A stretch of 64,000 bases of DNA from the NCBI RefSeq assembly GCF_014638275.1, contig NZ_BMFJ01000002.1:744001-808000 (forward strand), in the 5' to 3' direction. A program made the translations under genes and the position numbers. Below the pieces are notes generated by a model, which had not been told where the DNA came from, did not search any database, and saw only the letters and a program-made list of their open reading frames with translations. This DNA is from Primorskyibacter flagellatus. Its GTDB lineage: Bacteria; Pseudomonadota; Alphaproteobacteria; Rhodobacterales; Rhodobacteraceae. Below, one piece after another: positions 28,996-41,425 of this stretch (positions within the stretch are counted from its first letter, which is position 1; every line of letters begins with the position of its first letter).

Positions 28996-30336
28996 TCAGA
29001 CCAGGGAGCGCAGGAAGGAATAGAACCGGCTGTCCTGCACCCGGCTCCAGTTGACCCGCATCGACGGGCGGTGCCTGCCCGGATCGACCCGGAACAGGCT
29101 GCCGGGCGCCAGCAGGATCCCCTGCTGCGCCGCTTCGGACGACACCGCCATGTCGTCCAGCCCCTCTGGTAGCATGACCATCCCGTACAGCCCGTTGTCC
29201 GGCGGCGCGAACAGGTCGAACCCCAGGCGGTGCAGGCGGTCGATCCCCTCAGCCCGCGCCTGGTCGAGACGGCGGCGCAGTCCCGTGCGCACCTTCTCGA
29301 ACCGGCGCGACAGGATCGCATCGGCAATCAGCCGTTCGGTATAGTTCGAGGAGTTCACCGACAGGATCATCTTGAGTTCAGCCAGGCTGGCCGCGATCCC
29401 CGGCTCCGCGATCAGGAAGCCTGAGCGGAGCGAAGGCGAGAGGATCTTGGAATAGCTCCCGATCTGGATCACCCGGCGGAACTGGTCCAGCGCCGCCAGC
29501 CGCATCCCCGTCACGCCCGGCAGGTCGATGAAGGGGTCGTCGTCGATCACCAGCATGTCCCGCCGGTCCGCGACCTTCAGGATCGCGTGCGCTGTCGGCA
29601 GGTCGATCGAACAGCCCGTCGGGTTCTGCACCAGCGACTGCGTGAAGAAAAGCCGCGCGCGATGCCTTTCGGCCAGCACCTCCAGCGCCTCCGGGTCGGG
29701 GCCGCGCGGGGTGCGGGGCACGCCGACGAAATTGACCTCCGACAGTTTCAGTTTGGAAAACAGTGGGTAGTAGCCCGGATCGTCCACCAGAACCGTATCG
29801 CCGGGCCGGGTGAAGCGGCGGATCACGAGGTCCAGCGCGTTGTTGGCGCCGAAGGTGGTCACGATCTGCGCCGGAGTCGCCACCAGCCCGGCGGCGATCT
29901 GCGCGGCGGCGATGCATTCGCGCAGGGTGAGCAACCCGTGCGGAGAGCCGTAGCCGCCTTCGCCCGCGGGCAGGGACACGGCGGGCAGGCTGGTCATCAG
30001 CCAGGCCTCCGGCGGGCGGCCGTCCCCTGCCAGCACCTTGTAGGGCCGGTCAAGCTGGACGTGCAGCAGGGATACGGTATCCGACGCCTCCCGCAGGTTG
30101 GTGGGTGCGGCGATGGCCGGGGCGACGCGGGCGACGTAAAAACCGGACCCCTGCCGCGACACCGCGAGGCCGTGCGCCACCAGCCGGTCATAGGCCGTCA
30201 CGATCACGTTCTTGGAGGCGCCGAACTGCTCTGCCGCTTGCCTGAGGGACATCAGCTTGGTCCCTTCCGGCAGGTCGCCGCTGTCGATACGCTGCCGCAG
30301 GGTTTCGAAAATCCGGTCGGTCTTGCTCTGACTCAT
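28996..30336 (-). CDS. MocR/PdxR-type regulator (GntR wHTH fused to aminotransferase fold)
   Basis: 446-residue chimeric transcription factor. Residues about 8-72 are a GntR winged helix (MSLRQAAEQFGASKNVIV, RQGSGFYV). The rest is a fold-type I aminotransferase domain that keeps the PLP Lys 297 in GSYSKILSPSLRSG and the NPTG loop. MocR proteins normally activate a divergent gene and repress themselves in response to PLP or an amine. It is divergent from the HMG-CoA reductase gene; a large dyad in the 112-base gap is a likely operator. The ligand is unknown and a mevalonate operon is an unusual target for this family. Confidence 0.92.
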   Translation of the reverse strand: MSQSKTDRIFETLRQRIDSGDLPEGTKLMSLRQAAEQFGASKNVIVTAYDRLVAHGLAVSRQGSGFYVARVAPAIAAPTNLREASDTVSLLHVQLDRPYKVLAGDGRPPEAWLMTSLPAVSLPAGEGGYGSPHGLLTLRECIAAAQIAAGLVATPAQIVTTFGANNALDLVIRRFTRPGDTVLVDDPGYYPLFSKLKLSEVNFVGVPRTPRGPDPEALEVLAERHRARLFFTQSLVQNPTGCSIDLPTAHAILKVADRRDMLVIDDDPFIDLPGVTGMRLAALDQFRRVIQIGSYSKILSPSLRSGFLIAEPGIAASLAELKMILSVNSSNYTERLIADAILSRRFEKVRTGLRRRLDQARAEGIDRLHRLGFDLFAPPDNGLYGMVMLPEGLDDMAVSSEAAQQGILLAPGSLFRVDPGRHRPSMRVNWSRVQDSRFYSFLRSLV

Positions 30337-30362
30337 GGAATATCTGTATCCAGTCTCACATA

Positions 30363-30395
30363 GGTACAGTAGGGAAAAATTTCCTTAACTGTACC
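30363..30395. promoter_or_regulatory. Large inverted repeat between MocR and HMG-CoA reductase genes, candidate operator
   Basis: Perfect arms GGTACAGT (30363-30370) and ACTGTACC (30388-30395) flank a 17-base A/T-rich centre containing GGAAA/TTTCC, itself a smaller dyad. Arm spacing places both half-sites on the same face of the helix roughly two turns apart. It is the only strong dyad in the divergent gap. Confidence 0.65.
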
Positions 30396-30448
30396 AATAC
30401 ATCAATCGACATTTCGCCGATGGTCCCCGCCAAGACGGAGGAGATTTC

Positions 30449-31753
30449 ATGTCACAGGCAGCACAGGGCGGCACCCCCGCCGTCAATTCCCGCATCGAGG
30501 GTCTTCGCGACATGGAGCCGGTGGACCGCCGCCGCGCCATCGCCGCCGCCGCCGGCATGGACCAGGCCGGAGAGGCCGCCCTGTCCGGTGAAGGGGCGCT
30601 CGCCCTTTCAGTCGCGAACGGCATGATCGAGAACGTGATCGGAAAGTTCGAGATGCCGCTCGGCGTTGCCGCGAACTTCCTCGTCAACGGGCGCGACTAC
30701 CTCGTTCCCATGGCGGTGGAGGAGCCCTCCGTTGTCGCCGCGGCCTCGTACATGGCCAAGCTGGCGCGCCAGGGCGGCGGGTTCACCGTCAGCTGCACCG
30801 CGCCGATCATGCGCGCGCAGATCCAGGTCATCGGCATCTCCGACCCCTATGGCACCCGTGCCGCGATCCTCGCCCACGAAGAGGAGCTGATCGAACAGGC
30901 CAATTCCCGCGACGTCGTGCTGGTGAGCCTTGGCGGCGGCTGCAAGGGGATCGAGGTCGAGGTCTTCCCGGAAAGCGCCATCGGTCCGATGGTCGTGCTT
31001 CATCTGCTGGTCGACGTGCGTGATGCCATGGGCGCGAACGCCGTCAACTCCATGGCCGAAATGCTTGCCCCCCGGGTCGAGGAGATCACTGGCGGAAAAG
31101 TCCGCCTGCGCATCCTGTCGAACCTCGCTGACCGCCGCATCGTGACCGCCAGCGTGCGGATCCCGCCCTCTGCGCTTGATACCAAAACGCTCAAGGGGGC
31201 CGAGGTCGCACAGGGCATGGTCGAGGCCTGTACCCTCGCCATGATCGACCCGTACCGCGCTGCCACCCACAACAAGGGCATCATGAACGGCATCGACCCC
31301 GTCGTCGTCGCCACCGGCAACGACTGGCGCGCGATCGAGGCCGGGGCCCATGCCTATGCCGCCCGCTCGGGTCGCTACTCTTCGCTCACCACATGGGAAA
31401 TCGCGAAGGACGGCACGCTGGTCGGCACGCTGGAAATGCCGATGGCGCTTGGCATCGTCGGCGGCGCGACCCGGACCCATCCGACCGCGCAGGCGTCGCT
31501 CAGACTGATGCGGATCACCACCGCGCGCGAACTGGCGGGAATCACCGCCGCCGTCGGGCTGGCCCAGAACATGGCCGCCCTGCGCGCCCTGTCGACCGAA
31601 GGCATCCAGCGCGGCCACATGGCGCTGCATGCCCGCAACATCGCGATCACGGCAGGTGCGGTCGGCGCAGACATCGACAGGGTGGCCAAGGCCATCGTGG
31701 CGGCGGGCGACGTCAGCGTCGGCCGCGCAAAGCAGGAGCTGGAAAGCACCTGA
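30449..31753 (+). CDS. mvaA: Hydroxymethylglutaryl-CoA reductase, degradative (class II)
   Basis: 434-residue class II HMG-CoA reductase, the form that in Pseudomonas mevalonii oxidises mevalonate to HMG-CoA with NAD+ and CoA. The catalytic set is present: Glu in [10 protein letters not shown] near 91, Lys in HNKGIMNG near 276, an Asp shortly after, and His in GHMALHARN near 393-397. [16 protein letters not shown] is the class II N-terminal signature, and length matches the bacterial enzyme. Start follows GGAGGAGATTTC. The context, a TRAP transporter immediately downstream and no mevalonate-pathway isoprenoid genes, supports a catabolic role. HMG-CoA lyase, the next step, is not in the window. 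Confidence 0.94.
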
Positions 31754-31778
31754 AAGCAATCCAAGGGAGGAGACTGAC

Positions 31779-32819
31779 ATGACCATCACCAACCGGCGCG
31801 GGATGCTGCGCCACACCGCGGCCGGCCTGCTGGCCGCCCCGGCCATCGTCGCCGCAAGCTCAGTGCGCGCACAGGGCGTGACGAAATGGCGGATGCAGGC
31901 GCTCTGGGGCGGCGGCACCACCCCGCAGCTGTACGAAGAGAAGTTCTGCGAGCGGGTAAAACAGCTTACCGGCGGCAGCCTGGAAATCACGCCCTTCGCA
32001 GGCGGACAGATCGTGCCCGCCGCACAGGCCTTCGACGCCGTCCGTGGCGGCGCTTTCGAGATGATGAAAACCTTCGACGGCTACACTGCAGGCAAGATCC
32101 CCGCGCACGGCTTTTCCTCCACCGTTCCCTTCGGTTTCCCCGAAGCGGACCAGTACGAGGCCTGGTTCTATGAGCGCGACGGCCTTGCCATGGCGAAGGA
32201 AAGCTATGAAGCCGCGGGCCTGACCTATGTCGCGCCGACCGTCTACGGAGAGGAGCCAATCCACTCCAAGGTCGAAATTCGCAAGATTGCCGACATGAAC
32301 GGTCTCAAGGGCCGCTTCGTTGGCCTGGCCTCCGCGGTGATGGCCGACTTCGGCGTCTCCGTCTCTCCGCTGCCGACGTCCGAGGTCTACTCCGCGCTCG
32401 ACAAGGGGCTTGTCGACTTCGCCGACCGCGGCGACATCAAGGCGAACTACGAGGAAGGTCTGCAGGAAGTCGCGAAGTTCCTCATCCTGCCCGGCGTGCA
32501 TCAGCCGTCGACCGCCACCGCCTATGTTGCCAATACGGCAGCGTACGGCCGGCTGGACGATCAGCAGAAGGCAGCGCTCGAGGTCGCGGCCCGCGAGGTG
32601 TCCGGCGCCCTGCGGCAGAACATCATCGTGGACAACGGCGAATACCTCAGGAAATACGAGGAAGCCGGGGTCGAGATCATCGACCTTGACGCCGACGACG
32701 TGGCCGAGGCCCGTGCCAGGGCGGTCGAGTCCTGGAAGAAAGCCGCGGGCGAAGATGATCTTGCCAAGCGGATGATGGAAAGCCAGATGTCGCTGATGCA
32801 GGAACTGCGCCTGCTCTGA
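31779..32819 (+). CDS. TRAP transporter substrate-binding protein (DctP family), mevalonate candidate
   Basis: 346-residue periplasmic binding protein of a TRAP transporter. The N-terminus NRRGMLR plus hydrophobic AAGLLAAPAIVAA and a cut after VRA looks like a twin-arginine (Tat) signal. The DctP fold is seen in GGQIVPAAQAFDAVRGG, GLKGRFVGLAS (Arg expected to bind the ligand carboxylate) and EVYSALDKGLVDFADRGD. Start at 31779 behind AAGGGAGGAG. It lies 25 bases after mvaA, so its ligand is most simply mevalonate, a small hydroxy-acid suited to TRAP systems; this is inference from context. Confidence 0.9.
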   Translation: MTITNRRGMLRHTAAGLLAAPAIVAASSVRAQGVTKWRMQALWGGGTTPQLYEEKFCERVKQLTGGSLEITPFAGGQIVPAAQAFDAVRGGAFEMMKTFDGYTAGKIPAHGFSSTVPFGFPEADQYEAWFYERDGLAMAKESYEAAGLTYVAPTVYGEEPIHSKVEIRKIADMNGLKGRFVGLASAVMADFGVSVSPLPTSEVYSALDKGLVDFADRGDIKANYEEGLQEVAKFLILPGVHQPSTATAYVANTAAYGRLDDQQKAALEVAAREVSGALRQNIIVDNGEYLRKYEEAGVEIIDLDADDVAEARARAVESWKKAAGEDDLAKRMMESQMSLMQELRLL

Positions 32820-32826
32820 CGGAATA

Positions 32827-32855
32827 CGCGCCGTGCCCGTCCGGGGCGCGGCGCG
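32827..32855 (+). terminator. Intercistronic hairpin between binding protein and small permease gene
   Basis: Twelve-base-pair stem CGCGCCGTGCCC / GGGCGCGGCGCG with one G-U pair and a 5-base loop starts eight bases after the binding-protein stop. No T-run follows, so read-through to dctQ is expected while the upstream message is stabilised. Confidence 0.6.
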
Positions 32856-32876
32856 ACCACGACCCGGAGACCCAGA

Positions 32877-33365
32877 ATGACCGCCATCGCCCGGAGCGTG
32901 ACCGCGCTGAACCGGCTGCTGTTTGCACTGGCCAAATGGCTGGTCTACGCCATTGTTCTGCTTATGCTCTGGGAGGTGCTGTCGCGCTATATGCTTGCGT
33001 CGCCGACCTCCTGGGCCCCCGAACTCGCCATGCTGATCTTCGGGCCCTTCTTCCTGCTTGGCGGTCCCTACCTTCTGCACCTCGGCGGTCACGTCGCCGT
33101 GGACATCCTGTCGGAAAAGGCGACCGGTCGCTTCGCCACGGTGCTGGCCCTCATCGGCTACGTGCTGGCCGCCGTCTTCGGCGCGATCCTGCTGTGGTTC
33201 AGCGTGCCGCTCGCCATGCAGTCCTACAGTTACGGTGAGACGAGCTATTCCGCCTGGAACCCGGTGATCTGGCCCGCCAAGGCTTTCCTGCCGCTGGCCT
33301 CCTTTCTGCTCATGCTTCAGGCGCTGGCCGAAATCGTGCTGGCCCTGCGCGGGGAGAAAGTCTGA
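32877..33365 (+). CDS. TRAP transporter small permease (DctQ)
   Basis: 162-residue membrane protein with four predicted helices, the size and topology of DctQ subunits. It couples the binding protein to the large permease in a Na+-driven importer. WEVLSRYMLASPTSWAPELA is the usual DctQ pattern in which an aromatic/Arg pair and a W follow helix 1. Stop and the following dctM start overlap (TGATG), so the two subunits are cotranslated. Confidence 0.92.
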   Translation: MTAIARSVTALNRLLFALAKWLVYAIVLLMLWEVLSRYMLASPTSWAPELAMLIFGPFFLLGGPYLLHLGGHVAVDILSEKATGRFATVLALIGYVLAAVFGAILLWFSVPLAMQSYSYGETSYSAWNPVIWPAKAFLPLASFLLMLQALAEIVLALRGEKV

Positions 33366-34690
33366 TGGAAAGCTCTCTGATCCTTCTCTTCATGTTCACC
33401 TCGCTGGTGGTGTTCATGCTCTCCGGGGCCGGGCTGGCCTTCGTGCTGGGTGCCATCGCGTTCATCTCGACGATCCTGCTCTGGGGCCCCTCCGCCCTGA
33501 TCGTCGCCGTCCTGAACACGTTTGAAACGATGACCTCGGAATCGCTCATGGCGATCCCGCTCTACGTGCTCATGGCCTCGATCCTGCAGAAATCCGCGAT
33601 CATCGACGCGCTCTACGACGCGATGGAGACGTGGTTCTCCAACGTGAACGGTGGCCTCGCCGTCGGCACCATCGCCATCTGCACCATTCTCGCCGCCATG
33701 ACGGGTGTCGTCGGCGCGGCGGTCGCGGCTATGGGGATCCTCGCACTGCCGTCGATGCTGTCGCGGGGCTATCACCCGCCTCTGGCGCTTGGCGCGATCT
33801 GCGCGGGGGGCACGCTTGGCATCCTGATTCCGCCTTCGGTCGTGACCATCGTCTACGCGATCACCGCGCAAATCTCGATCGGCAAGATGTTTGCCGCCGG
33901 GATCGTGCCGGGGCTGATCCTCGCCGCCAGCTATTCGGCCTATATCCTCGTCCGCACCTGGCTGAACCCGTCGCTCGCGCCCAAGCCGGAACAGGCCGTG
34001 ACCGTTCCCCTGTCGGTCAAACTGTCCAAGCTGAAGGCGCTGATCCTGCCCGGCCTCGTGGTGATCGGCGTGCTCGGATCCATCTACGCCGGCATCGCCA
34101 CCCCGACGGAGGCCGCCGCCGTCGGGGTTCTGGGCGCCGCCGCCTCGGCGATCGTCACCCGCCGCCTGTCCGTCCCCATGCTGTCCGAAGCGGCCACCGA
34201 CACCCTGCGCGTCACCGCCATGATCCTCTGGATCACCATTGGTGCGCGCGCCTTCATCTCGGTCTTCGTCGCCACCGGAGGCGCGGATTCCCTGCTGAAC
34301 TTCGTGGAGACGCTGGAGGCGTCGCGCTGGATCGTTCTGGGCGCGATGGTGCTGATCCTGATCTTCCTCGGCCTGTTCCTGGACGAGATCGGCATCATCC
34401 TGCTCTGTGTGCCGGTCTTTTTGCCGATCGTGTCGGCGCTGGAATTCGACCCGCTCTGGTTCGGCGTGCTCTTCATGATCACCGCGCAGATGGCCTATAT
34501 CACCCCGCCCTTCGGCTACACACTGTTCTACCTCAAGGGCGTGCTGCCCCCCGGCATCGGCATCGGCCAGGTCTATCGCGGGGTCATCCCCTTCTTCCTG
34601 ATCCAGGTCGCGGTGCTGATCCTGTTTGCGCTCTTCCCCGGTCTCGTCACCTGGCTTCCCGAGATGATGATGTCCAACGCGAAACCCTAG
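33365..34690 (+). CDS. TRAP transporter large permease (DctM)
   Basis: 441-residue inner-membrane protein with about 12 segments and the DctM marks LGILIPPSVVTIVYA and TPTEAAAVGVLGA. It forms the Na+-coupled translocation path with the preceding DctQ. Last gene of the mvaA-TRAP operon. Its stop codon TAG overlaps the stop of the convergent gli gene inside the palindrome CTAG, so there is no space for a terminator between the two operons. Confidence 0.93.
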   Translation: MESSLILLFMFTSLVVFMLSGAGLAFVLGAIAFISTILLWGPSALIVAVLNTFETMTSESLMAIPLYVLMASILQKSAIIDALYDAMETWFSNVNGGLAVGTIAICTILAAMTGVVGAAVAAMGILALPSMLSRGYHPPLALGAICAGGTLGILIPPSVVTIVYAITAQISIGKMFAAGIVPGLILAASYSAYILVRTWLNPSLAPKPEQAVTVPLSVKLSKLKALILPGLVVIGVLGSIYAGIATPTEAAAVGVLGAAASAIVTRRLSVPMLSEAATDTLRVTAMILWITIGARAFISVFVATGGADSLLNFVETLEASRWIVLGAMVLILIFLGLFLDEIGIILLCVPVFLPIVSALEFDPLWFGVLFMITAQMAYITPPFGYTLFYLKGVLPPGIGIGQVYRGVIPFFLIQVAVLILFALFPGLVTWLPEMMMSNAKP

Positions 34691-35546
34691 CGCCAGCCGA
34701 AGAACACTTCGGGATTATCCAGCACCGCCATGCGCCGCGTCGCGAGGTCGAGCCAGCCGAGCACGGTGTCCAGCAGCACACCGTCATCCGGGTATTCTGC
34801 GGTCGTCCTGGCAAGGTTGTGCGGCCAGTTGGTCCCCCAGAGCAGCCGGTCCGGTGCATGCCCGGCAATCGCGCGGGTGTTGGCGGCGATGTCGTCGAAA
34901 CCGGGCGCGCCGGTCTTTGAACTCTCATAGCACCCGGCAAGCTTGAACCAGCAGTTCCCGCCGTCGATCAGACGCTTCACGGCAGCGATCTCCGGCCCGT
35001 CGGGTGCGGCACCACGGAAGAACTTCCCGTGGTGATCCAGGACCCAGTTGCTTTTCAGCGCGGCCAGCCGGGCTTCGTGATCCAGAATGTCGGAGCCGTC
35101 GAACTGTACCGCGAGCACCCAGCCCCGGTCCGCCGCCTTCGCATCCACCGCCTCGAGCGCGTCGAGCCCCACGGCCCCGCCCGGCAGGTCCATGATCCGC
35201 GCCCCCACGATCCCCGCATCGGCCAGCCGGTCCAGCTCCGCCTCCGGCGTTTCGGCGTCGATCACCGCCATGCCCTTCGCGATGTCCCCAAGCTCTGCGA
35301 GACATGCCAGCAGGCAGGAATTGTCCCGCTGCTGCGCATTGCCCTGCGTCACCACCACCCGACCGATGCCAAGCCACCGCGCCATCTCAAGATACATCGA
35401 CGGAGTCGGCAGCGGGTCCGGCGGATTGCCCGGACCACCGGGCAGCGCGGGATAGCCGGGCAGGTAGATGTGGCACTGCGCGTCGATCGCCCCCTCGGGC
35501 AGGGAAATCGCCGGCGCGGCGCCGGTCAGCTTGCGGTCGATCATGC

Positions 35547-35550
<4 letters not shown>
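34687..35550 (-). CDS. gli: D-galactarolactone isomerase (amidohydrolase-like)
   Basis: 287-residue TIM-barrel protein of the amidohydrolase (COG3618) group. It keeps the fold marks DAQCHIYLPGYP, HHGKFF and LLWGTNWPHN. In Agrobacterium such a protein converts galactaro-1,5-lactone (the Udh product) to the 1,4-lactone used by Gci. The assignment rests on position: gli, gci and kdgD form one unit by ATGA overlaps, facing udh and the TRAP genes. Start at 35550 overlaps the gci stop; a second ATG two codons later is possible. It could instead be a plain lactonase, but the pathway is complete with the isomerase reading. Confidence 0.85.
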
Positions 35551-37657
<2,107 letters not shown>

Positions 37658-38395
37658 CTATTTGGACGAGTCGCGCAGAAGGCTGCGATAGCGCTGCTGG
37701 CTGCCTTTCAGATGTTTGCGCATCGCATCGCGCGCCGCCCCCGCATCCCCGGCGGCTATCGCGTCGGCAATCGCGCGGTGTTCACCAGAAATCAGCGCGA
37801 TGTAGGATTCGGGGCTGCGCTGGCTGGCCGAGACCTGGAGATTCGACCGCGGAATCACCGTCGGGCCCATCACGTCCAGGAACTCTGCGAACCGCGGATT
37901 GTTTGCGGCCAATGCCACGGCGCGATGAAAACGGAAATCGGCTTCGGTGGTCGCCTGACCTTCCCGCGCCAGGGCGCGCACCTCTGCCTCGGCGTCGTAA
38001 ATCTCTTCCTCCTGCGCTGGCGACCGGCGGGCCGCGGCGAGCGCCGCCGCCTCCATCTCAACCGCCGTACGCAGCTCAAGCATCTCGATTATAGACGAAA
38101 TCTTGTCCAGATCGACGATCTGAAAGGGCCGCTGCGCCGCCTCGACGGGTTCCAGTACGAACACCCCGGCCCCCTGCCGCGGCTCCACCAGACCGTCGGC
38201 GCGCAGGGTCGCGATCGCCTCGCGGATCACCGTGCGCGAAACCGAGAAGCTTTCGGTCAACTGCGCTTCGGACGGCAGACGGTCCCCGACCGCAAAAGCC
38301 CCCCCGCCGATCTGGTCGCGCAGTTCCTGCACCACTTCGGCCACTAGGTTCCTGCGGGCGCGGGGGGCGGGCTTCTGCATCCGGGTCTGTTTCAT
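37658..38395 (-). CDS. FadR-subfamily GntR regulator of the uronate cluster
   Basis: 245-residue GntR regulator: winged helix in about 15-85 (GDRLPSEAQLTESFSVSRTV, EPRQGAGVFV) and an all-helical FCD ligand domain with the metal-binding Asp/His pattern (FHRAVALAANN, EHRAIADAI). Start behind AGGTGAC. It sits between the kdgD-gci-gli unit and the divergent TRAP-udh operon, each with a similar operator-like sequence. The likely role is a repressor released by a uronate or a pathway intermediate, comparable to UxuR/ExuR. Confidence 0.9.
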   Translation of the reverse strand: MKQTRMQKPAPRARRNLVAEVVQELRDQIGGGAFAVGDRLPSEAQLTESFSVSRTVIREAIATLRADGLVEPRQGAGVFVLEPVEAAQRPFQIVDLDKISSIIEMLELRTAVEMEAAALAAARRSPAQEEEIYDAEAEVRALAREGQATTEADFRFHRAVALAANNPRFAEFLDVMGPTVIPRSNLQVSASQRSPESYIALISGEHRAIADAIAAGDAGAARDAMRKHLKGSQQRYRSLLRDSSK

Positions 38396-38473
38396 GTCAC
38401 CTGTCCTCTGGAAGAACAGATAAGCGGACTCGGGGGGGAATTGTCAAATGGCATCGCAAATGCATCAGACGTA

Positions 38474-38503
38474 TTGACAAGTTATATGATGATTTCGCAT
38501 ACC
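38474..38503 (+). promoter_or_regulatory. Candidate promoter and operator of the uronate TRAP-udh operon
   Basis: TTGACA at 38474-38479 is followed after 18 bases by CATACC (38498-38503), a workable sigma-70 promoter 50 bases upstream of the binding-protein ATG. The spacer begins with ACAAGTTATATGAT, matching the ACAAGTTAT core upstream of kdgD. The regulator bound here would occlude RNA polymerase. Confidence 0.6.
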
Positions 38504-38551
38504 CTGCGCATCAGCGGTTCAAAGCCGCCGGAGTATCAGGGAGGACTCACC

Positions 38552-39526
38552 ATGACTTTCACTCGCTTTGCGCTGTCCTGTGCCCTTGCGGCGCTGGTCA
38601 CCGCACCCGCAATGGCCGACCAGTGGCGCGGCTGGAACATTCACCCCGAAGACTATCCGAATTCCATCGCGCTGGAAGGATTCGCCAAGGAGGTCGCCGA
38701 AAAGACCGCCGGCCGGATCGAACCGCAGGTCTACCACAACGCGGTGCTGGGCGATCAGCCGGACGCGATCGAACAGACCCGCAACGGCGGCCTGGACTTC
38801 GCGAACTTCAACATGGGTCCCATGGGCCAGATCGTGCCCGCGACCAACGTCCTTTCGCTGCCGTTCATCTTCAAGAACGTCGACCAGATGCACACCGTCA
38901 TGGACGGCGAGATCGGTCAGCGCTTCTCCGACGCCCTGGCCGAGGAAGGCCTCGTCGCGCTCAGCTGGTTCGACAGCGGGTCGCGCAGCTTCTACAACAC
39001 CAAGAAACCGATCGAGACGCCTGCCGACGTGGCCGGCATGAAGTTCCGCGTCATGAACAACGACCTCTATGTCCAGATGGTCGACAAGCTTGGCGGCAAC
39101 GCCACGCCCATGGCCTATGGTGAAGTCTACCAGTCGCTCAAGACCGGTGTGATCGACGGGGCGGAGAACAACTATCCTTCCTACGACAGTTCGAACCACT
39201 TCGAAGTCGCGCCCTATTACTCGATCACCAACCACCTCATCATTCCGGAATGCCTCTGCGTATCGACCGCGTCATGGGAGAAGCTCTCGGACGAGGACAA
39301 GGCGATCGTGAAGGAAGCCGCCGTCAATGCGGCCGAGGAACAGCGCTCCCTCTGGGCGGAGCGCGAGATGAAGAGCCGCGAGAAGGTTGAGGCGGCGGGT
39401 TCCAAGATCAACGAGGTCAAGGATCCGCAGGCCTTCCAGGACGCCATGGGGCCGGTCTACGAGACCTTCATCAAGGCGAACCCCGATCTCGAAAGCCTGA
39501 TCAAGGATATTCAGGCCACCATGTGA
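38552..39526 (+). CDS. TRAP transporter substrate-binding protein, uronate candidate
   Basis: 324-residue DctP-type binding protein with a Sec signal peptide (cleavage after APAMA near 23). Family marks: GMKFRVMNN with the carboxylate-binding Arg, GEVYQSLKTGVIDGAENN, and FDSGSRSFYNTKKPI. Start behind AGGGAGGACTCACC. Next to udh and KGSA dehydrogenase genes, so the cargo should be galacturonate and/or glucuronate, as known for UxuP-type TRAP proteins. A 10-bp hairpin separates it from dctQ. Confidence 0.92.
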   Translation: MTFTRFALSCALAALVTAPAMADQWRGWNIHPEDYPNSIALEGFAKEVAEKTAGRIEPQVYHNAVLGDQPDAIEQTRNGGLDFANFNMGPMGQIVPATNVLSLPFIFKNVDQMHTVMDGEIGQRFSDALAEEGLVALSWFDSGSRSFYNTKKPIETPADVAGMKFRVMNNDLYVQMVDKLGGNATPMAYGEVYQSLKTGVIDGAENNYPSYDSSNHFEVAPYYSITNHLIIPECLCVSTASWEKLSDEDKAIVKEAAVNAAEEQRSLWAEREMKSREKVEAAGSKINEVKDPQAFQDAMGPVYETFIKANPDLESLIKDIQATM

Positions 39527-39542
39527 TCGGCTACTCTCCGAC

Positions 39543-39568
39543 TGCCCCGGCCCGACCCGGCCGGGGCA
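39543..39568 (+). terminator. Intercistronic hairpin after the uronate binding-protein gene
   Basis: Perfect 10-bp stem TGCCCCGGCC / GGCCGGGGCA with a 6-base loop, 17 bases after the stop codon, without a long T-run. Same position as the hairpins after the other two binding-protein genes in this window. Confidence 0.65.
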
Positions 39569-39590
39569 TTTCCATGTCCCGGAGGCGCGG

Positions 39591-40148
39591 ATGACCCTTC
39601 CCGATACCGACAGGCCCCTGCAAAACGGGCTACACGACGGGCCCTTTGCGGAAAAGCCGCGTGACCCGGTCTACCGGCTGCTCGACCTCATGGCGCGGAT
39701 CTGCATGACCGTGGCGGGTGTTCAGATGGTCTCTCTCATCGCCATCTTCGGCTGGCTGGTCTTCGGCCGCTACGTGCTGAACGACACGCCGACATGGGTG
39801 GAACAGGCCGCGCTGGTTCTGGTGGTCTGGATCACCTTCCTCGGCGGCGCGGCGGGCGTCTGGAACAAGGCGCATCTCTCCATCGATTTCGTCCGCGAGA
39901 TGATGCCGCCCCGTGTCCGCATCCCCCTGCGATGGATCGCCGTGATCGGCGTGCTGATCTTCGGCGCCTACCTCGCATGGTATGGCTGGGACCTTGCCGA
40001 AAAGACCTGGCGGCGACGCATTCCGATGCTGGCCATCGCCGAAGGCTGGCGTGCCGTGCCGATGGCAATCTGTGGTGCGCTGACCGTGCTCTTCTCTCTT
40101 TATCACATGGCCGCTCTGATCCGCGGCGAAGACCCGACGGAGCGATAA
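39591..40148 (+). CDS. TRAP transporter small permease (DctQ), uronate system
   Basis: 185-residue four-helix DctQ subunit with an N-terminal cytoplasmic extension of about 30 residues before the first helix. FGRYVLNDTPTWVEQAALV and NKAHLSIDFV are the usual DctQ pattern. Start behind CCGGAGGCGCGG. Its stop shares one base with the dctM start (TAATG). It completes the uronate importer with the flanking genes. Confidence 0.92.
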   Translation: MTLPDTDRPLQNGLHDGPFAEKPRDPVYRLLDLMARICMTVAGVQMVSLIAIFGWLVFGRYVLNDTPTWVEQAALVLVVWITFLGGAAGVWNKAHLSIDFVREMMPPRVRIPLRWIAVIGVLIFGAYLAWYGWDLAEKTWRRRIPMLAIAEGWRAVPMAICGALTVLFSLYHMAALIRGEDPTER

Positions 40149-41425
40149 TGGGCCTTTCAATCCTATTCGGCCTCTTCGCGCTTGGCCTGATTTCGGGCAT
40201 GCCGGTGGCCTTTGCGCTTGGCCTCGCCACGGTTGGCGGGTTCCTCTACGAAGGCCTGCCGATGTTCATCGGCTTCCAGCGGATCCTCTCGGGCATCTCC
40301 GTCTTCTCCCTGCTCGCCATCCCCTTCTTCATCTTCGCCGGAGAGCTGATGATGCAGGGCGGTATCGCTGGCCGTCTCGTCCGCCTCGCCGCCTCCGCCG
40401 TCGGCAAGTCGCGCGGAGGGCTGGGGGTCGTCAACGTCGCCTCCTCCATGCTTTTCGGCGGCATCTCCGGTTCCGCTGTCGCAGATACCTCCGCGCTTGG
40501 CGCGATCCTGATGCCGGTGATGAAGGAAAAGGGTTACGATGCCGACTACGCGGTGAACGTGACCGTCACCTCCTCGGTCGCCGGTGTGGTGATCCCGCCC
40601 TCGCACAACATGATTCTCTACGCGGTCGCAGCCGGAGGCGTCTCCGTCTCCCAGCTGTTCATGGCGGGCGTGGTGCCGGGCGTTCTGATGTGCCTTTGCC
40701 TCGGCGTGGTGGCGTGGTGGATCGCCGTCCGCCGCGGCTACCCGTCCGAGGAGTTTCCGGGCTGGCGCGCGCTCTTCATCTCTTTCGCCGCCGCGATCCC
40801 CGGCCTGCTGACCGCCGTCATCATCGTGGGCGGGGTGCTCTCCGGCGTCATGACCGTCACGGAGTCGGGGGCATTCGGGGCGATCTGGGCGCTGCTCGTC
40901 ACCGTCTTCGTCTATCGCGAACTGACCTGGCCGGGGTTCAAGCTGGCGGTGGTCGCCGCCGTCCGTACCACCGCGCTGGTAATGATCCTCGTCGCGACCG
41001 CATCCTCCTTCGCCTATCTGCTGGCGCTCTACCGCGTGCCGGACAATCTGGCGACCTTCGTGACCTCCATCTCCTCCAACCCGATCGTGATCCTTCTGCT
41101 GCTGAACCTGACGCTGCTGGTGCTTGGCATGATCATGGACATGGCCGCGCTCATTCTGATTTGTACCCCGATCTTCCTGCCCGTCGTCGTCGGGCTGGGC
41201 ATGGACCCGGTGCAGTTCGGCGTCATCATGATGATGAATCTCGGGCTCGGCCTCTGCACCCCGCCGGTCGGCGCCTGCCTCTTCGTCGGCTGCGTCGTCG
41301 GCGGAATCCGGATCGACCAGGCGGTGCGCACGATCTGGCCGTTTTACCTCGCGATCCTCGTTGCGCTGATGCTGGTGACCTATGTTCCGGCCATCTCGCT
41401 CACCCTGCCCAATCTGCTGAAGTAA
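40148..41425 (+). CDS. TRAP transporter large permease (DctM), uronate system
   Basis: 425-residue DctM protein with about 12 membrane segments; SGSAVADTSALGAILMP and VIPPSHNMILYAVAAGG are strong family marks. The start at 40148 overlaps the dctQ stop; longer upstream frames are other-frame readings of dctQ. Followed after 11 bases by udh, so import and the first oxidation are cotranscribed. Confidence 0.93.
   Translation: MGLSILFGLFALGLISGMPVAFALGLATVGGFLYEGLPMFIGFQRILSGISVFSLLAIPFFIFAGELMMQGGIAGRLVRLAASAVGKSRGGLGVVNVASSMLFGGISGSAVADTSALGAILMPVMKEKGYDADYAVNVTVTSSVAGVVIPPSHNMILYAVAAGGVSVSQLFMAGVVPGVLMCLCLGVVAWWIAVRRGYPSEEFPGWRALFISFAAAIPGLLTAVIIVGGVLSGVMTVTESGAFGAIWALLVTVFVYRELTWPGFKLAVVAAVRTTALVMILVATASSFAYLLALYRVPDNLATFVTSISSNPIVILLLLNLTLLVLGMIMDMAALILICTPIFLPVVVGLGMDPVQFGVIMMMNLGLGLCTPPVGACLFVGCVVGGIRIDQAVRTIWPFYLAILVALMLVTYVPAISLTLPNLLK

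What the first reader, a model, noticed from the sequence alone, without database searches (positions are those of the whole stretch)
28996..34690. Putative mevalonate uptake and oxidation operon controlled by a MocR regulator
Seen: a class II HMG-CoA reductase with its catalytic Glu, Lys and His segments, followed 25 bases later by a full TRAP transporter, with a PLP-type MocR regulator divergent. Known: in Pseudomonas mevalonii the class II enzyme works in the direction mevalonate to HMG-CoA during growth on mevalonate. Inference: this is a self-contained import plus first-oxidation module for mevalonate (or a close hydroxy-acid) in a marine bacterium. HMG-CoA lyase is missing from the window, and a PLP-dependent regulator for a carboxylic-acid operon is unexpected.
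Basis: partly seen in the sequence, partly recalled or inferred. Interest (0 to 1): 0.75.

Follow-up and report, generated by a model that had tools for sequence, protein, structure and literature searches.

The report
Mevalonate uptake and breakdown operon
This bacterium carries a switchable set of genes that most likely imports mevalonate, the isoprenoid building block, and uses it as food, and a related regulator and DNA switch recur beside the same enzyme in other bacteria.

Summary
In detail: divergent MocR regulator, class II HMG-CoA reductase (HMGR) and complete TRAP transporter at the stated coordinates. The main inference is supported. The genome has MEP-route genes (DXR, IspE), no HMG-CoA synthase match and no other GHMP kinase over cut-off; it does have HMG-CoA lyase elsewhere and acetoacetyl-CoA synthetase. 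So HMGR should oxidise mevalonate. The 'unexpected' MocR is a conserved partner: 30 of 37 proteobacterial loci examined have one divergent to HMGR. A predicted operator, GGTACAGT-N17-ACTGTACC, lies between the genes. This pattern (gap 8-30) occurs once in this genome and in 5 of 295 family genomes, each time within 1.75 kb of HMGR. The transporter is interchangeable around this core (38 linked loci: TRAP 9, TctA-like 20, branched-chain-type ABC 4, CoA-transferase/hydratase variant 3, none seen 2), which supports mevalonate or a close precursor as cargo. Not shown: ligand of the binding protein, effector of MocR, growth on mevalonate. It is a new variant of the known Pseudomonas mevalonii catabolism; the most interesting open point is a regulator that keeps the PLP-site residues checked in a pathway without an amine.

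The parts
28996..30336 (-). MocR-type regulator (GntR DNA-binding domain plus aminotransferase-like domain); PLP-site residues N238, D267, K297 and R427 kept
30363..30395 (.). Predicted MocR operator: inverted repeat GGTACAGT (30363-30370), 17 bases, ACTGTACC (30388-30395); only place in the genome with the pattern GGTACAGTN{8,30}ACTGTACC
30449..31753 (+). Class II HMG-CoA reductase, predicted to run mevalonate to HMG-CoA; E92, K276, D292, H390 active site; D155 at the position recalled for NAD preference
   Evidence: only copy found in the genome
31779..32819 (+). DctP-type TRAP solute-binding protein; nearest solved relative by sequence TTHA0766 (lactate-binding); ADRGD at residues 215-219, shared by the nine HMGR/MocR-linked binding proteins aligned
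32877..33365 (+). DctQ small TRAP membrane subunit
33365..34690 (+). DctM large TRAP membrane subunit

Best explanation
This is an inducible mevalonate-use operon. The TRAP transporter brings mevalonate (or a close relative) into the cell. [quoted passage not shown] An HMG-CoA lyase encoded on another contig splits HMG-CoA into acetyl-CoA and acetoacetate, and acetoacetyl-CoA synthetase activates the acetoacetate again. The divergent MocR protein controls the operon, and probably its own gene, by binding the inverted repeat GGTACAGT-N17-ACTGTACC between them. Shown here: genes, genome content, conserved neighbourhood, conserved operator-like sequence. Inferred: cargo, direction of the enzyme, binding of MocR, repression or activation, and the effector.
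For: Complete active site and gap-free alignment to the P. mevalonii enzyme. Own genome: one HMGR; no HMG-CoA synthase N-domain; the one GHMP kinase over cut-off is IspE; DXR present; HMG-CoA lyase 446.8 bits, near carboxylase-, carboxyltransferase- and acyl-CoA-dehydrogenase-like genes as in a leucine cluster (no equivalog over cut-off among these three); acetoacetyl-CoA synthetase 707 bits against 520.9. 32 of 33 HMGR-bearing family genomes lack an HMG-CoA synthase match. MocR divergent to HMGR in 30 of 37 proteobacterial loci L007-L043. Lyase ORF within 9 kb in 20 of 38 linked loci, plus a remnant in L008. Exact operator half-sites in the 250 bases at HMGR's start in 28 of 30 linked and 0 of 7 unlinked loci, 10 others in 602 kb; full pattern in 5 of 295 family genomes, all beside HMGR. 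P. mevalonii can grow on mevalonate only: passage in PMC7503714.
Against: No experiment. The binding protein's nearest solved relatives are named lactate- or keto-acid-binding, so another hydroxy acid is possible. The lyase is not in this operon and has no exact operator pattern of its own (one site in the genome). The TIGR00532 label 'degradative' is a family name and does not prove direction. Most HMGRs of the family do not have MocR beside them: only 7 of the 33 other regions fetched do. The number of operator patterns is not above the reversed control (5 against 9 by my count). The DctP structure model failed.
Confidence: 0.77

Rival explanations
1. The cargo and inducer are not mevalonate itself but a related acid that ends in mevalonate or HMG-CoA, such as anhydromevalonate, mevalonolactone or 3-hydroxy-3-methylglutarate.
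For: Some relatives have an SMP-30/gluconolactonase-like gene in the row (L012, L020, L041; Pfam match tested on L041). Others have a class III CoA-transferase plus a hydratase or dehydratase beside HMGR: L145, L146, L149, L033 and L037, L042.
Against: None of these extra enzymes is in the five-gene window locus; HMGR itself acts on free mevalonate.
Confidence: 0.17
2. HMGR works in the reductive, biosynthetic direction as part of a mevalonate pathway.
For: Class II enzymes do so in Gram-positive cocci (general knowledge).
Against: No HMG-CoA synthase match, no GHMP kinase over cut-off other than IspE, MEP-route genes present; coupled to an importer.
Confidence: 0.03
3. The TRAP transporter belongs to another pathway and lies next to HMGR by chance.
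For: TRAP systems are common here; a second one begins at 38441 in a sugar-acid-type cluster.
Against: The orthologous DctP-DctQ-DctM set follows HMGR in 9 of 38 linked loci, including a Rhizobium and Tistrella mobilis, with ADRGD in 9 of 9 and in none of the 6 other DctP rows aligned; other loci place other importers at the same spot.
Confidence: 0.04

Closest known systems
Pseudomonas mevalonii mevalonate catabolism (mvaA HMG-CoA reductase, mvaB HMG-CoA lyase)
   Same: Same class II reductase (aligned without gaps to 1qax) and same predicted first step. In the five Pseudomonas loci examined (L031, L032, L033, L037, L041) HMGR and lyase are adjacent.
   Different: Here a TRAP set stands where those five Pseudomonas loci have a TctA-like permease, the lyase is off-site, and the proposed regulator is MocR. 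The regulator described for P. mevalonii mvaAB is MvaT (title of Rosenthal and Rodwell 1998, seen only in a reference list; paper not held); the next title in that list calls MvaT an H-NS family member.
MocR/GabR regulators (GabR, TauR, EhuR/EutR, PdxR)
   Same: Same two-domain architecture and PLP-site residues; divergent from a transport and catabolic operon.
   Different: The named NCBIfam MocR models score under their cut-offs; the regulated pathway has no nitrogen. I did not compare the operator with published MocR motifs.
DctP-type TRAP binding protein TTHA0766 (2zzv) and keto-acid binders
   Same: Best solved relatives by sequence; Arg in LKGRF (R179) kept, recalled as the carboxylate-binding position of this family.
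   Different: ADRGD where TTHA0766 has ADFVG and unlinked relatives have TEWVG or TEFSL.

Membership tests
Mevalonate catabolism of the P. mevalonii kind | Class II HMG-CoA reductase with complete active site | tested here: met
Mevalonate catabolism of the P. mevalonii kind | HMG-CoA lyase in the genome | tested here: met
   L004, PRK05692 446.8 bits against 246; second relative L005 265.1 bits
Mevalonate catabolism of the P. mevalonii kind | Lyase in the same operon | tested here: not met
   No hit in the window. ORF after dctM in L007, L011, L142; remnant of 137 aligned residues in L008
Mevalonate catabolism of the P. mevalonii kind | No biosynthetic mevalonate pathway that would explain the reductase | tested here: met
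   (assembly 93.9% complete)
Mevalonate catabolism of the P. mevalonii kind | Growth on mevalonate | not testable with these tools
   needs culture
MocR/GabR regulators | GntR wHTH plus fold-type I aminotransferase domain | tested here: met
   PF00392 and PF00155 over cut-off
MocR/GabR regulators | PLP-binding residues kept | tested here: met
   N238 in 38 of 38 linked rows; D267, K297, R427 each in 37 of 38, the other being the cut-short L022 ORF
MocR/GabR regulators | Member of a named MocR subgroup (PdxR, YczR, EhuR, GabR, rhizopine MocR, PtsJ) | tested here: not met
   all below curated cut-offs
TRAP transporters (DctPQM) | All three subunits | tested here: met
   PF03480, PF04290, PF06808 over cut-off
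TRAP transporters (DctPQM) | Mevalonate as ligand | not testable with these tools
   context only; AlphaFold model unusable, pLDDT 46.8

The most novel reading that the evidence does not exclude
A proteobacterial 'mevalonate regulon' run by a MocR branch whose effector has no amino group (mevalonate, HMG or a CoA thioester), although the protein keeps its PLP lysine. In some members the same operator controls a CoA-transferase/enoyl-CoA-hydratase(/TRAP) operon that would turn anhydromevalonate, for example from fungal hydroxamate siderophores, into mevalonate by a carnitine-like CoA-recycling step. That would make this a general route for feeding on isoprenoid and siderophore building blocks.
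Probability: 0.3. Interest if true: 0.7.

Novelty: new variant of a known kind. Interest (0 to 1): 0.52.

Why it matters
Mevalonate breakdown is known mainly from P. mevalonii, and in what I could read its specific regulator and importer are not settled. This locus and its relatives offer a testable regulator, a predicted operator and three alternative importers. It also sets a clean puzzle for the MocR family, whose characterised members bind PLP and control PLP, GABA and taurine genes (start of the abstract of PMC5320631), with ectoine and beta-alanine systems also known (listing of PMC8739950; passage of PMC7057948): how does a PLP-site regulator sense a pathway without nitrogen? A mevalonate-responsive MocR would also be a useful sensor in isoprenoid engineering.

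Tried and rejected
Structure of DctP: AlphaFold2 with 9 sequences gave pLDDT 46.8 and pTM 0.38; not used, no fold search made. Biosynthetic role of HMGR: rejected on genome content. Idea that the weaker HMGRs of the family (51-55% identity, 14 genomes) are biosynthetic, as recalled for Paracoccus zeaxanthinifaciens: not supported, since 32 of 33 HMGR genomes lack an HMG-CoA synthase match (the exception, G056, is not of that group); in the one such locus whose neighbours I scanned (L162), malic/PTA, acyl-CoA synthetase and sigma-54 activator genes lie upstream. The strict operator (gap 14-20) as a class-wide marker: failed, 1 of 385 genomes, the window's own, against 3 genomes with the reversed control by my count. 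In the family scan too the number of sites is not enriched: the reversed control gives 9 sites in 8 of the 295 genomes by my count of the list, the real pattern 5 in 5; only the placement is informative. Two linked loci (L025, L029) have no exact half-site upstream, only near matches. Weak hits (26-41%) of the ABC query in L015, L020, L024, L145 and L149 were not counted as transporters. Literature: searches for mevalonate with TRAP, catabolism, solute-binding protein, MvaT, sole carbon source, and MocR listed no paper on this system; one search listed 20 of 959 and one search listed 12 of 41, mostly not opened. One listed paper with both words (PMC6018831) was checked and concerns non-mevalonate isoprenoid synthesis and C4 TRAP systems (passages). 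The library lacks most subscription papers, and I recall but could not see a large ligand screen of TRAP binding proteins (Vetting et al. 2015).

Rows dropped or relabelled: L022 (cut-short MocR ORF) left out of the tree; L037 MocR relabelled from 'other' to 'linked' because its over-long ORF lies beside HMGR. ORF and gene picking in the scripts is mechanical. L008 was first counted as having the lyase; the check showed a remnant only, and the counts were changed.
Full report
What is there. On the minus strand, 28996-30336 is a MocR-type regulator; 112 bases away, on the plus strand, come a class II HMG-CoA reductase (30449-31753), 25 bases later a TRAP binding protein (31779-32819), then the small (32877-33365) and large (33365-34690) TRAP membrane subunits, which share one base. 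Family scans put each of the five over its Pfam cut-off. HMGR scores 408.5 bits on TIGR00532 (cut-off 259.95). It aligns without gaps to chain 1qax, the P. mevalonii enzyme, so the active-site Glu, Lys, Asp and His fall on E92, K276, D292, H390, and the Asp recalled for NAD preference falls on D155. The best solved relative is 9v7y.

Direction of the enzyme. In the window's own genome (4.61 Mb, 10 contigs, 93.9% complete) HMGR has one copy. There is no match to the HMG-CoA synthase N-domain, the only GHMP kinase match is IspE of the MEP route, and DXR of the MEP route is present. HMG-CoA lyase is on contig C1 (L004, 286 aa, PRK05692 446.8 bits), within about 9 kb of biotin-carboxylase-, carboxyltransferase- and acyl-CoA-dehydrogenase-like genes, the usual set of a leucine cluster (none of the three passes an equivalog cut-off, so the name is inferred). 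A second, weaker lyase relative lies on C3 (265.1 bits, L005). Acetoacetyl-CoA synthetase is present (707 bits). The genome can therefore take mevalonate to acetyl-CoA on paper, and I found no route that needs HMGR for isoprenoids. In the family, HMGR was found in 33 of 295 genomes, and 32 of these 33 have no HMG-CoA synthase match; the exception is G056.

The regulator is a recurrent partner. In 30 of the 37 a MocR gene lies divergent to HMGR, in Rhodobacterales, Rhizobiales, Burkholderiales, Pseudomonas and Salinicola among others. In the family, 33 regions around HMGR were fetched (of 35 matches, the others being the window itself and one fragment), and 7 of these have MocR beside HMGR, so within the family MocR linkage is the minority. 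On a tree of 46 MocR proteins the 37 linked ones are one side of a branch against 9 others (support 89/81; six of the nine are paralogues of the own genome; long branches make this provisional). Of 38 linked proteins, 38 keep the Asn and 37 each the Asp, Lys and Arg of the PLP site (N238, D267, K297, R427 here), the missing one being a cut-short ORF. A PLP-binding form is therefore expected, although the pathway has no amine.

The operator. Between MocR and HMGR lies GGTACAGT (30363-30370), 17 bases, ACTGTACC (30388-30395). The pattern GGTACAGT-N8..30-ACTGTACC occurs once in the genome, here. In 295 family genomes it occurs in 5, one site each, with gaps of 17 or 18, and in all five the site lies within 1.75 kb of HMGR (coordinates). 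All five are among the seven genomes, window included, that have MocR beside HMGR in the regions seen. In two of them (G000, G002) the site is between MocR and HMGR; in three (G092, G222, G234) it lies before the CoA-transferase gene on the other side of MocR. The reversed control gives 9 sites in 8 genomes by my count, so the number of sites is not enriched; their placement is. With half-sites GG[TG]ACAGT or ACTGT[AC]CC, 28 of 30 MocR-linked loci have at least one (15 have two or more) in the 250 bases at HMGR's start, 0 of 7 unlinked loci have one, and the linked loci hold 10 others in 602 kb. With a relaxed pattern, two sites stand 26-27 bases apart, start to start, in 11 loci (25 in the window), and 17-18 apart in 9 loci; others differ, such as 46 in L011 and 20 in L024 and L025. 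L012, L015 and L020 use GGGACAGT/ACTGTCCC. A class-wide scan of the strict form (gap 14-20) found only the window's own site in 385 genomes, against 3 genomes with the reversed control by my count.

The transporter is interchangeable. Over 38 MocR-linked loci (window, 30 named, 7 of the family), by my tally: orthologous TRAP set right after HMGR in 9 (window, L007, L008, L011, L023, L024, L141, L142, L157); a TctA-like permease with a small partner gene in 20 (on L041 the permease matches PF01970 with 66.6 bits and the small gene has no family match); branched-chain-type ABC in 4 (after HMGR in L018 and L025, on the far side of MocR in L040 and L043); a CoA-transferase/hydratase variant in 3 (L145, L146, L149; TRAP subunits in two); none seen in 2 (L016, L021). 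A lyase ORF lies within 9 kb in 20 of 38, and L008 has a remnant: intact in L007, L011 and L142, broken off in L008 and absent in the window, it looks like a gene being lost from this operon type. Different importers at the same place beside the same enzyme and regulator argue for a shared cargo. The nine linked binding proteins share ADRGD at 215-219, which none of the 6 other DctP rows has. The nearest solved relative is the lactate-binding TTHA0766, which fits a hydroxy acid. The structure prediction failed.

Literature. That P. mevalonii can grow on mevalonate only and uses the enzyme in reverse is stated in PMC7503714 (passages). PMC12292504 (passages) reports that the HMGR of Ruegeria pomeroyi predominantly uses NADH; its main text has no 'operon' or 'catabol'. 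PMC13370337 (passages) states that the P. mevalonii and Burkholderia cenocepacia enzymes use only NADH. PMC5320631, the survey of MocR regulons, does not mention mevalonate or HMG-CoA in its main text (find). PMC13001223 (find) has none of the catabolism terms tried. MvaT as named regulator of P. mevalonii mvaAB was seen only as a title in a reference list. The searches listed no paper on this system. No claim of novelty beyond this library is made.

Verdict. Import, direction and induction by mevalonate are inferred, not shown. It is a new variant of a known kind.

Noticed in passing
L145:5864-7966, L146:12091-16183, L149:3683-7749: In three family genomes the exact operator sits directly before a class III CoA-transferase gene (58-59% to that of L033) followed by an enoyl-CoA hydratase (and TRAP subunits in L146 and L149), with MocR and HMGR next door. 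This CaiB/CaiD-like pair could convert anhydromevalonate to mevalonate by CoA exchange.
   Followed up: partly
L042:9995-14644: Peristeroidobacter soli: HMGR, class III CoA-transferase, enoyl-CoA hydratase and an esterase-like gene in a row, without MocR: the same enzyme trio outside the Rhodobacterales.
   Followed up: partly
L144:5829-14342: Unnamed family genome: TRAP-like genes, HMGR, a phenylacetate-CoA-ligase-like gene and an enoyl-CoA hydratase on one strand, without MocR: a ligase in place of the CoA-transferase.
   Followed up: partly
L033:12377-14477, L037:11066-13142: Two Pseudomonas loci have a class III CoA-transferase, a FAS1-type dehydratase and a further small gene (no Pfam match in L037) between HMG-CoA lyase and the TctA-like transporter.
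   Followed up: partly
L012:13262-14293, L020:13241-14275, L041:14169-15191: SMP-30/gluconolactonase-like genes (Pfam match tested on L041 only) with N-termini that look like signal peptides by eye, after the transporter: possible periplasmic mevalonolactone hydrolase.
   Followed up: no
L008:14217-14627: Pseudooceanicola spongiae: only the first 137 residues of HMG-CoA lyase align after dctM, a remnant, while L007, L011 and L142 have a full ORF there.
   Followed up: partly
L159, L161-L173: A second, weaker HMGR group (51-55% identity) in the family, without MocR or lyase hits beside it; in the one locus scanned (L162) malic-enzyme/PTA and acyl-CoA synthetase genes lie upstream, and L171 has a different TRAP set nearby. 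No HMG-CoA synthase match in these genomes, so its role is open.
   Followed up: partly
L009:7949-11281: Roseovarius litorisediminis: HMGR divergent from a GntR/FCD regulator followed by a different TRAP binding protein and permease, a possible independent version of the module.
   Followed up: no
34687-41425: Convergent neighbour whose stop codon end overlaps dctM by 4 bases: amidohydrolase, enolase-superfamily dehydratase, KdgD, GntR/FCD regulator and a second TRAP system; looks like a sugar-acid (glucarate/galactarate type) cluster.
   Followed up: partly
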